From Mesostigma viride (lineage: Eukaryota > Streptophyta > Mesostigmatophyceae > Mesostigmatales > Mesostigmataceae), in the NCBI GenBank assembly GCA_009746045.1, contig RPFO01000072.1, positions 5,078,087 to 5,142,086 on the forward strand: DNA of 64,000 bases. Reading direction: 5' to 3'. Below, piece by piece: positions 3,501-57,357 of the stretch; position 1 is the first letter of the stretch, and each line of letters begins with the position of its first letter. The notes beneath the pieces were generated by a model. The model was not told the DNA's origin, did not search any database, and saw nothing but the letters and a program-made list of their open reading frames with translations. A program made the translations under genes and the position numbers.

Positions 3501-6500
3501 ACCACATGAAGACTTGAAAGCTGACGCACGACTTGTTTCTAGTTGTTGTGTATGGCGGCGAAAGTGGGTTGGCAATCGACTGTCAATGAGGCAGCGAGCA
3601 GCCGTCCACCCGGGATACATTAGCCCTTTGCGCCTTCCTTGGTGATGGCCAACGTTGCCTTACAAGCTTACTTTGGCTTTCTGTAGGCATGCTGTCTACA
3701 AGCCCGCCTGTAGCCAACCGCCATCCTTACCCAGCTGTAGCATACCTCGAACGCCCCAAACTGCTGCACAGTGCCCACGTGAAGTGCCCCGCAAGTCTGA
3801 AATTATATCCCCTTGTTACTACCCACAATTGCCAATTGTATATGGCAACTACTGTGGCCAGCTATACGCCGCGTTGATTGTTGAAACCTGCTGCTGTGTT
3901 CCTCCTGCTGCCGTACTTCTCCGGCTGCTGGCCTCCTGCCTCCGGTGCATCTCCTGCTGCTGCCGGCAACTTTTCCGATTCCTTTCCTCCCTTGTTTCTC
4001 ACCCATGCCCTCAACTTCGTGCTTTCCTTCTACCTATACAGTCATTCACGCCTTAAGTTGGGTTGGCTTAAGTTGGGTTCACGCCTTAAGTTGGGTCGAA
4101 TTGAATTCCGGCGTTTTCAGTTCAAAGTAGTTCAGAATACTATGTTTTAGTATCTTTAGTTCAAATTAGTAGAATTTAGTAGAGTCATTCACGCCTTAAG
4201 TTGGGTTCACGCCTTAAGTTGGGGTGACCCCTCAAAAACCACGAACCCAACTTAAGGCGTGAATGACTGTACTGTAGTAACTCGCGATCCAACTTGGAAG
4301 CCGCATGCCTGGGCGTCCATACAGTCTCTGTTGCCGCCTTTAATCACTCATGTCGTGGGCAAGGTACCACTATTTGCGGCCCCACCCATCGAGCCTGCTC
4401 GCATATGTTGAAATCTGAGCGTGCGGAGGATGCCTTGCCATAGTACATCTTTATAAGTAACGTGATAAAGATAACCATCAAACAATATGCTTGCACATGG
4501 GCAAGTTACATCGGCCCGCCTACCATGTTATATTAGAGTAGTATAGTTTGTTTCACTGCTACTATAGTGTACGTACGGACCAACTGGCAGATGTGTGTGC
4601 CATGAATACGAGCACCCTCAATCAAGGAAAGCTTGTTGTTCATGTTTGTTCTCCCTTCCCGAATAACGTGTTCATACCCAGCGGTATGTCTCTTTTGATG
4701 TTGTCGCCCTTCTCATCCTTCAAAGCACAAAAACAAACGTTCGCAAGAAAAGAACACATGCGCTTGCATGAACTGGCATGTGCCACACAAACTCACATAT
4801 GCACGCAAATGGGGGGTTGGCTTTGTGGGTTCCTGCCGCTCCCCAACCGTGCCCACCCGCGCTGTACTGGCTGCCAGCCGTTTTTTTCCCCTCCGTGTCA
4901 GCCCTGCCATGGATCTATGCAGGGTTTACTGCAGGACCCACGGATGGTTTTGATGGTTGGCCCCCCGGCATGTCCCTGCTCACGTCTTCAGGCGTGAGCC
5001 AGGTGACCGCAGGGTACCCCTTTGAGCTGCGGGGGTTACTTGTCATCGGCGGCGAGGGGGTCACGGACGTGGTCCTGGAGCTCTCGATTGGTGCACAAGG
5101 GGGCAAGCGCGGCTGTGTGGGGTTCCTGCTGTCATCGGTCACCCCCTCACAAGGCTTCTGCGATAAAGCAGGCGGCAGTGACGGATGCTCTGTGTCCTGC
5201 ACCCTGGGGGCAGTGCAGGGGAGCGACCCCGTGTCCCTGGACATGACCCTGGGGGCGCTGGTCGTGGACGCCCAGCTGGAAGTGGAGGCAAGAGTCCTGT
5301 CAGGGAGAGACACCACCCTGGAGCTGCCGGTGCAGGTCGTCGATGCCTTTGGTGTCGAGGCGGATCCCATTCGTGCGCTTGGTAGGTGGCGCGTGGGTTG
5401 CTAATGTCTGCATTCTGTGGCTAATGCTTGCTTCCACGTGCTTGGTAGGTGGCACGTGGGGTGCCAGTAGAGGCTTCAATGGTCGCTGCCATCCATTACT
5501 TGGTGCTGGCATCCATGTGCTTGGAAGGCCATGTGTGGGTTGGCCATGTGGGCTGGCAGTAAAGGCCAGGCCACTCCTGTGGCTGCTTCAAATTATAATG
5601 CTTGCATCCACGCACAGCTTGATCTCCCACATTTTGTAGGCGGGTCGTGGGTGCGGACCTAACAGCGTGTGCGTAATTGCGGTCCGTGGGTCTGGCTGGC
5701 TTGTGCATTACCCATGGTTCTGGAGCTTGGGTCTGGTAGCACTTTTATGTGTAATGCCTTTATAAATAGAACTCTATCAAGAATGTTAGGCGTCCTTGTG
5801 CACATGCCGCATCATTACAGAAACCGCATACTGCTAGCGATGAACGCCATCCCTATTTAATTTCCCCAGCGAGAAGGGACCATGGACTTCCTTTCGGCAC
5901 TGCCCGCTCATTGCCGCTGAACTCTAGCCGTTTGCGCAGACATGGCCCCCCGTATGCCTTGTGGCCCCCGCCCTGCCCATGTCACTGCCTGCAAAATGAG
6001 CCTTGTCAAAGTAACCATGAATTGCTTGGCATGGCAACCACATCTAAACATATTGCCGTCGTGAAAAAGAAGTTTATCCCATCTCTATCTGTCCGCCATT
6101 AATCTGCCCATTCTTCTAAGAACAAAAAAAATTATGATTTCCGCCGATCATCAGTAGGTAATCAAGTCTGTACAGCTGCCTGTACGCCTATGTGCCTAGC
6201 ATGTTGCCTATGTGCCTAGCATGTTGCCTATGTGCCTTGTGTGTTGTCTTGTGTTGTCTATTTGCCTAGCGCGTTGCCTATGTGCCTAGCATGCTGCCTA
6301 GGGGCCTAGCATGCAGCCTATGGGCCTAACGTGTTGCCTATGTGCCTGGAAGGCTGCCTACTATGTGCCTAGTGTGTTGCCTATTCGCCTAGCGTGTTGC
6401 TCTACTCCCTGATCTATACTGTCCTGCTTAGTTTCGACCTGTGTCTACCAATGTGTGTCTACCTATAGCTCTTCCTGCGGTGGTCGTCATGGTCTGGGAA

Positions 6501-57357: not shown

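What the first reader, a model, noticed from the sequence alone, without database searches (positions are those of the whole stretch)
5375..55310. Introns repeatedly contain tandem copies of their own splice junctions
In all three genes, on both strands, introns carry copies of the exon end plus intron start, beginning at or near the real donor. Donor-side cases: 5381, 9565, 13834, 19545, 24981 (TRP-like gene); 46828, 45953, 44428, 43230, 42075, 40978, 38312, 36558 (DDB2); 50290, 55013 (SYLF). Acceptor-side cases: 16201, 24797, 38396. Periods run from 28 to about 150 bp with 2-8 copies, and many copies retain GT or AG. Unlike introner elements, the repeated unit is private to each intron. This points to a junction-anchored duplication process (replication slippage, template switching, or repair primed at nascent-RNA/splice boundaries) that lengthens introns and makes decoy splice sites.
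Basis: partly seen in the sequence, partly recalled or inferred. Interest (0 to 1): 0.92.

Follow-up and report, generated by a model that had tools for sequence, protein, structure and literature searches.

The report
Introns carrying copies of splice donors
In a stretch of the genome of the green alga Mesostigma viride, about a third of the introns begin with DNA that repeats the end of the exon, the start of the intron, or both; the copies are real and appear to leave the protein unchanged, but it is not shown that the rest of the genome does this.

Summary
The copies are real. The window is from Mesostigma viride. Of 15 named donor cases, 13 beat at least 199 of 200 shuffles, 9565 is borderline (3/200 reach it) and 40978 fails (121/200); the 3 named acceptor cases hold. 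Copies are direct (11/39; inverted 0/39).

Only donors look anchored. Duplicated blocks start at the donor in 13 of 39 introns, against 1.7 at random intron positions (0 of 20,000 draws); 36 neutral simulations reached at most 8 of 38. Acceptors show no clear excess (4/39 against 4.6).

It did not generalise: 23 homology-defined donors of two related genes gave 2 starts, controls 4/65; all independent donors gave 13/94 against 25/275, p=0.13.

Paralogues show lineage-specific events; decoy donors decay at about the neutral rate. Best reading: ordinary short duplications, tolerated because the exon-proximal donor stays in use, plus an unexplained donor bias strongest in DDB2. A splicing-linked duplication process is possible, not shown.

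The parts
5341..5574 (+). Gene 1 donor 5381 with copies whose junctions lie at about 5444 and 5523; gene 1 has up to four units (two of them weak) where one is detected in the paralogue
   Evidence: score 21, 0/200 shuffles; alignments; paralogue
13808..13945 (+). Gene 1 donor 13834; copy of exon -26 to intron +12 with junction at about 13932; not detected in paralogue L036
   Evidence: (22, 0/200)
19533..19706 (+). Gene 1 donor 19545 with a 46-bp repeat array starting at the junction
   Evidence: 16, 0/200
24971..25260 (+). Gene 1 donor 24981 with donor copy at about 25125; the paralogue has an array here too
   Evidence: (18, 0/200)
46467..46855 (-). DDB2 donor 46828 with three further copies of the exon end at spacing of about 110 bp (junctions about 46706, 46593, 46485)
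   Evidence: 23, 0/200
45810..45992 (-). DDB2 donor 45953; 50-nt copy (exon -39 to intron +11, 90% identical) with junction at about 45826
   Evidence: 40, 0/200
44290..44464 (-). DDB2 donor 44428 with copies 36 and 126 nt downstream
   Evidence: 27, 0/200
43080..43254 (-). DDB2 donor 43230 with three decoys that keep GAG|GTGAGG (offsets 47, 92, 131)
   Evidence: 44, 0/200
41890..42083 (-). DDB2 donor 42075 with several CAT|GTGAGC-like copies, irregular spacing
   Evidence: 28, 0/200
36470..36580 (-). DDB2 donor 36558 with one copy 80 nt downstream
   Evidence: 22, 0/200
37680..38334 (-). DDB2 donor 38312 with a dispersed exon-end copy 622 nt downstream; not a simple tandem repeat
   Evidence: 21, 0/200 within 800 nt
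50256..52351 (+). SYLF donor 50290 and seven copies of its junction at 51.8-52.35 kb (88-bp unit), separated by a 54-bp x 26 satellite
   Evidence: 41, 0/200 within 2,200 nt
55010..55320 (+). SYLF donor 55013 with GTGAGTGAT-like copies at irregular spacing
   Evidence: 17, 1/200
9553..9615 (+). Gene 1 donor 9565 with a weak copy 28 nt downstream (borderline)
   Evidence: 14, 3/200
40796..40975 (-). 42-44-bp array inside the DDB2 intron next to donor 40978; no exon sequence, so not a junction copy
   Evidence: one search score 8, 121/200
16071..16255 (+). Acceptor 16201 and its upstream copy at about 16081
   Evidence: 22, 0/200
24577..24830 (+). Acceptor 24797 and upstream copies at spacing of about 77-79 bp
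   Evidence: 28, 0/200
38360..38512 (-). Acceptor 38396 and its upstream copy 113 nt away (about 33 nt of exon repeated)
   Evidence: 27, 0/200

Best explanation
These are ordinary short direct duplications (units of about 30-130 bp, some with other sequence between copies, some grown into minisatellites), produced by local DNA repair or slippage, that happened to span or abut a splice donor. SHOWN: direct orientation, private units, irregular spacing, lineage-specific presence between paralogues, and gene models that use the exon-proximal copy and give the conserved protein. SHOWN for this window only: an excess of blocks that begin at authentic donors. INFERRED: the spliceosome keeps using the 5'-most donor, so the rest of the duplicate falls into the intron and is neutral; a copy spanning an acceptor is tolerated less often because the upstream acceptor would compete. 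NOT EXPLAINED: why the excess is at donors and strongest in DDB2. I regard it as a local or gene-specific mutational bias until genome-wide data say otherwise.
For: Copies confirmed for 13 of 15 donors and 3 of 3 acceptors. Direct 11/39, inverted 0/39. Thirteen units have no match elsewhere in the window and 3 of them match the fetched loci, only around paralogous junctions. Paralogue comparison: the exon-8 end is duplicated in L036 but no copy is seen at 8741; the 13834 copy is not detected in L036; 5381 has up to four units where one is detected in L037. The DDB2 protein aligns to Chara DDB2 across the duplicated donor junctions with no gap at them, except three extra residues just after the 44428 junction, in the next exon. 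Decoys: in 10 of 14 introns tried that gave decoys, the donor motif matches at 0.83 against 0.66 for a mirrored control, and GT is kept in 15 of 23, about what one-sided neutral decay predicts (the prediction is my reasoning). Random positions of 200 kb upstream, genes included, have spanning copies in 39/320, close to window intron interiors (5.2/38; designs differ), which fits a general process. Independent donors: starts 13/94 against 25/275, p=0.13; spans 13/94 against 26/275, p=0.16.
Against: A uniform neutral process does not give the donor excess: 13/39 block starts against 1.7; simulated neutral evolution with constrained exons gave at most 8 of 38 in 36 data sets; in one common design 13/39 against 6/89, p=0.0002. 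Donor-like motifs elsewhere in the introns do not show it (7/111). An unrelated gene (L023) has three predicted donors, all with spanning copies, and WD40 loci show spans in 8/31 against 12/104 (one-sided p=0.05) and starts in 7/31 against 12/104 (p=0.11).
Confidence: 0.58

Rival explanations
1. Donor-anchored duplication: splicing or transcription makes the 5' splice site a hotspot (for example R-loops over the G-skewed intron start, nicks repaired with duplication). A unicellular alga would inherit every such event.
For: Edge clustering 13/39 against 1.7 at authentic donors, not at 111 donor-like motifs (7/111), not at acceptors (except p=0.03-0.07 at its loosest setting). Intron starts are G-skewed, more so in anchored introns (+0.23 against about +0.10 over +3..+100). 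Neutral simulation maximum 8/38. L023 donors.
Against: No excess at 23 homology-defined donors (2 starts, controls 4/65); independent total p=0.13. G-skew may partly be made by the arrays themselves. The edge interval was chosen after seeing the data. No molecular evidence.
Confidence: 0.22
2. Selection keeps the copies, for example as extra U1 landing sites or regulated alternative 5' splice sites.
For: Anchored introns hold many strong donor-like motifs (sense 32 against antisense 15 in about 15 kb), while non-anchored introns hold few (sense 9 against antisense 29 in about 21 kb). Several families keep GTGAGT or GTGAGG.
Against: Motif decay fits neutrality. In 10 of 13 introns examined a stop codon in frame precedes the first decoy, and 6 of 23 decoy offsets are multiples of three, no preference. 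Some arrays are not detected in the paralogue.
Confidence: 0.08
3. Introns were created by tandem duplication of an AGGT-bearing exon segment.
For: Exon-end plus donor copies resemble the starting product of that model.
Against: In none of 39 introns does the donor flank stand out as resembling the intron's own acceptor flank (own mean 2.9, maximum 7; non-cognate mean 3.2, 99th percentile 9).
Confidence: 0.03
4. Chance cluster: a repeat-rich gene picked out because it was striking.
For: About half the signal is in DDB2 (7/14); two related genes show no excess; the finding was selected by a reader.
Against: 0 of 20,000 draws in the window; gene 1 alone has 4/21.
Confidence: 0.09

Closest known systems
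Tandem duplication crossing an intron-exon boundary in a potato RdRp gene (PMC4974935; abstract and Introduction read)
   Same: A duplicated segment spans an exon-intron boundary and part of it ends up as intron
   Different: There the duplication created a new intron; here existing introns became longer and no new intron is evident
[quoted passage not shown] Hellsten ATP2A1; fission yeast 24-bp arrays; as described in the Introduction of PMC4974935)
   Same: Tandem copies of exon sequence that carry splice signals
   Different: No donor-to-acceptor homology in any of 39 introns
Human IFI6 (6-16) minisatellite that supplies several splice donors (recalled, not read; look-up one search failed)
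   Same: A minisatellite whose unit holds the splice donor, anchored at the real donor
   Different: One gene with 12-bp units there (recalled); here many introns, each with its own longer unit. Decoy use unknown here
Short tandem duplications from repair of adjacent nicks or breaks in rice and Arabidopsis (recalled, not read; look-ups failed)
   Same: Direct repeats of tens of bp, sometimes with filler
   Different: Not described as tied to splice donors, as far as I recall
Introner elements (recalled)
   Same: Repeats tied to introns
   Different: Introners share one sequence among many introns; these units are private as far as searched

Membership tests
Short direct (tandem) duplication / minisatellite | Copies in the same orientation, close together | tested here: met
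   11/39 direct, 0/39 inverted within 400 nt; two named cases lie farther away
Short direct (tandem) duplication / minisatellite | Repair signature (filler or microhomology at breakpoints) | tested here: inconclusive
   Unmatched sequence between copies seen by eye at 5381 and 13834; no systematic test
AGGT tandem-duplication intron gain | Donor flank homologous to the acceptor flank of the same intron | tested here: not met
   Own maximum 7, non-cognate 99th percentile 9
Introner elements | One element sequence shared by many introns | tested here: not met
   13 units: no hit outside the own intron in the window; 3 hit only around paralogous junctions in 300 kb; whole genome not searched
Minisatellite supplying splice donors (IFI6-like) | Donor motif inside the repeat unit | tested here: met
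   GT kept in 15 of 23 decoys; sequences
Minisatellite supplying splice donors (IFI6-like) | Decoy donors used in RNA | not testable with these tools
   No RNA data held
Donor-anchored duplication process | Excess of duplication edges at authentic donors over random intron positions | tested here: inconclusive
   Met in the window (13/39 against 1.7); not met at 23 independent donors

The most novel reading that the evidence does not exclude
In Mesostigma, active splice donors are hotspots of short tandem duplication: a transcription- or splicing-linked process repeatedly copies the last few to few dozen nt of the exon plus the intron start into the intron, lengthening introns from their 5' end in some genes, and this helps explain the alga's long introns.
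Probability: 0.2. Interest if true: 0.85.

Novelty: new variant of a known kind. Interest (0 to 1): 0.45.

Why it matters
How introns get long is mostly told through transposons. If donors are duplication hotspots, there is a second, polar route that also seeds decoy splice sites and raw material for alternative 5' splice sites. Even in the ordinary reading, the paralogue pairs show donor-spanning duplications present in one copy of a gene and not detected in the other, with the predicted protein unchanged, which is useful for measuring how splicing filters structural mutations. Mesostigma has long introns (mean 1,142 bp, 30.1% of intron space annotated as repeats; passages of PMC6947507).

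Tried and rejected
A first scoring scheme let scores run through long arrays and simple repeats; it was dropped for an anchored, capped extension on masked sequence. Three exons in my first gene 1 list (2131-2209, 9291-9357, 15304-15337) were removed, and a few boundaries moved by 1-9 nt, after comparison with P0121 and P0122. A higher duplication density in introns (0.17-0.43 of positions) than in intergenic DNA (0.00-0.04; 500-bp bins p=0.0005) was not kept as a claim: the intergenic part is small and holds a reverse transcriptase fragment, and random positions in 200 kb upstream, genes included, were as duplicated (39/320). Ab initio donors in those 200 kb: starts 4/40 against 9/106 controls and 24/320 random; spans 2/40 against 8/106 and 39/320, results against the reading, weakened by poor prediction (in the window 13 true to 8 other at that threshold). 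WD40 loci (24 of the 30 loci, overlaps dropped, lower threshold): starts 7/31 against 12/104; several predicted donors there look false (L008 1665 continues in frame; L003 and L020 show no WD40-like frame, by eye). The neutral simulation did not match the window's repeat density exactly (its highest interior expectation was 3.9 spans and 2.7 starts, against 5.2 and 1.7 in the window) and gave donor spans up to 1.5 times the interior. At the loosest setting acceptor ends reach 6/39 against 2.4 (p=0.03) or 3.1 (p=0.07); five introns have block ends at -24..-15 of the acceptor, where pyrimidine tracts could mislead; not followed up. Intron creation by AGGT duplication was rejected. Slippage caused by the donor motif itself was rejected.

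Full report
WHAT THE WINDOW IS. My hand-joined DDB2 protein (465 residues) matches a database protein labelled Mesvir1/25730 at 100%; the neighbours are Mesvir1/25729 (gene 1) and 25731 (SYLF). I read the label as Mesostigma viride; the window lies in a 440-Mb assembly at C113:5078087-5142086, close to the published 441.8 Mb (passages of PMC6947507). Gene 1 shows only a Big_12 domain, SYLF a Ysc84 domain. I modelled 39 introns (21, 14 and 4; 42,442 bp). Gene 1 junctions were checked against P0121 and the paralogue P0122. The DDB2 protein aligns with Chara DDB2 across the duplicated donor junctions with no gap at them, except three extra residues just after the 44428 junction, in the next exon, so the exon-proximal donor gives the conserved protein. 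These are gene models, not RNA.

ARE THE COPIES REAL? Each named junction was tested by extending an alignment outward from the junction in both directions, on sequence with simple repeats masked (8.9%), against 200 dinucleotide shuffles. Donors: twelve at 0/200, 55013 at 1/200, 9565 at 3/200, 40978 at 121/200. Acceptors: three at 0/200. Two donors (38312, 50290) needed a longer reach (800 and 2,200 nt). Exon-terminal 30-mers match their own intron better than all 37 others at 8 of 38 donors and 4 of 38 acceptors, where about one each is expected. Copies are direct only (11/39 against 0/39 inverted). Thirteen units had no match outside their own intron in the window.

IS THE JUNCTION SPECIAL? 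Compared with random positions in the same introns, donors have spanning copies in 11/38 against 5.2 expected (p=0.002); with a 1,000-nt reach 12/38 against 5.2 (p=0.0005); acceptors 4/39 against 4.6. Masking touches 9 of 39 acceptors and 4 of 39 donors, so the acceptor test is somewhat weaker. Along the intron the share of introns with a downstream copy peaks at +4 (34%), lies at 23-31% to +50 and 14-29% to +250, and then at 7-18%; into the exon it falls from 24% at -4 to 16% at -20, 3% at -36 and 0 at -40 and -44. Blocks begin within -40..+6 of the donor in 13/39 introns against 1.7 at random anchors, reached in 0 of 20,000 draws; at a stricter threshold 9/39 against 1.0. Block ends near acceptors are 2/39 against 1.7, though at the loosest setting 6/39 against 2.4 (p=0.03). 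I chose that interval after seeing the profile. Neutral simulation with constrained exons and uniform duplication gave donor starts of 1.1, 1.8 and 3.8 on average at three rates, maximum 8 of 38 in 36 data sets, and similar donor and acceptor spans; it did not match the window's repeat density exactly. Donor-like motifs elsewhere in the introns, on both strands, show block starts in 7/111 (Fisher against 13/39 p=9e-5). So neither exon constraint nor the motif seems to explain the window's donor excess.

DOES IT GENERALISE? Not so far. I read 200 kb upstream, 30 WD40 loci and 6.6 kb of the P0122 gene, 300 kb in all. Homology-defined donors in the P0122 gene and in a further paralogue (L035-L038): starts 2/23, spans 3/23, against 4/65 and 6/65. 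Ab initio donors in 200 kb: starts 4/40 against 9/106, spans 2/40 against 8/106. WD40 loci: spans 8/31 against 12/104 (one-sided p=0.05), starts 7/31 against 12/104 (p=0.11); one gene there (L023) has three of three predicted donors with spanning copies, two of the three keeping GT in the best alignment. All together starts 13/94 against 25/275, p=0.13, spans 13/94 against 26/275, p=0.16. The same design in the window gives starts 13/39 against 6/89, p=0.0002, but spans only 11/39 against 13/89, p=0.06. By gene the window has DDB2 7/14, SYLF 2/4, gene 1 4/21. The effect is either gene-specific or a local cluster; many of the independent donors are only predicted, which dilutes any signal.

AGE AND FATE. 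The paralogue allows dating. At the exon-8 donor it repeats at least 58 nt of exon end plus intron start 116 nt downstream; at gene 1's matching donor (8741) no copy is seen. The copy beyond 13834 is not detected in the paralogue. At 5381 gene 1 has up to four units, the last two weak, where one is detected in the paralogue. At 24981 both have arrays, and the paralogue's donor context resembles gene 1's decoy. So some donor-spanning duplications arose or were lost after the genes split. Decoys lose the motif at about the pace expected if only the real copy is constrained: 0.83 match against 0.66 in a mirrored control in 10 families, p=0.04; 15 of 23 keep GT (the neutral expectation of about 0.81 per lineage is my own estimate). 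In 10 of 13 introns a stop codon in frame comes before the first decoy, and 6 of 23 offsets are multiples of three. Non-anchored introns have fewer strong donor-like sites in sense than in antisense (9 against 29, p=0.002), so cryptic donors seem usually avoided, while those in the arrays are tolerated.

HOW IT MOST LIKELY WORKS. A short stretch is duplicated in place by repair or slippage (inferred). If it spans a donor, the exon-proximal donor remains and the rest becomes intron (supported by protein models, not by RNA). The copies then drift (supported). If it spans an acceptor, the upstream copy would be met first and would often break the frame, which fits the lack of clear excess there (inference). 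The donor excess in this window remains unexplained; a transcription- or splicing-linked hotspot is the most interesting option, with G-skew at intron starts (+0.23 in anchored, about +0.10 in other introns) as weak support.

KNOWN OR NEW. It works like tandem duplication across a splice boundary (potato RdRp, PMC4974935, abstract and Introduction read) and like the recalled IFI6 donor minisatellite. It is not AGGT intron gain and not introners on the evidence in hand. I make no claim that it is absent from print: only and 20 of my paper searches were answered. Verdict: new variant of a known kind, interest 0.45.

Noticed in passing
window 50357-51749: 54-bp x 26 satellite (95% matches) inside the large SYLF intron, lying between the donor and its later copies
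   Followed up: partly
window 16469-17224: 76-bp x 10 satellite (97%) in gene 1 intron 14, starting about 45 nt after the donor
   Followed up: no
window 35250-36218: About 1 kb of pentamer repeats (CCAAC, CCCCG, AACCA) in a DDB2 intron
   Followed up: no
window 41639: GC-AG intron in DDB2 (donor GCAAGT)
   Followed up: no
window 59072-59470, minus strand: Reverse transcriptase fragment (PF00078) downstream of SYLF
   Followed up: no
window 19319-22060 and 1126-3370: The database protein P0121 lacks exons that paralogue P0122 supports and reads the first exons in another frame than homology suggests; the public gene model looks faulty
   Followed up: partly
26 non-anchored introns: Strong donor-like 9-mers are fewer in sense than antisense (9 against 29), a sign of selection against cryptic donors
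   Followed up: partly
acceptors of gene 1 introns 5, 6, 11, 12 and DDB2 intron 7: Blocks of local duplication end 15-24 nt before the acceptor in five introns; could be pyrimidine-tract similarity
   Followed up: no
C113:4.64-5.11 Mb: A local family of gene 1 paralogues on both strands of C113
   Followed up: partly
L023 817, 1609, 2231: Unrelated WD40 gene with donor-spanning copies at all three predicted donors
   Followed up: partly
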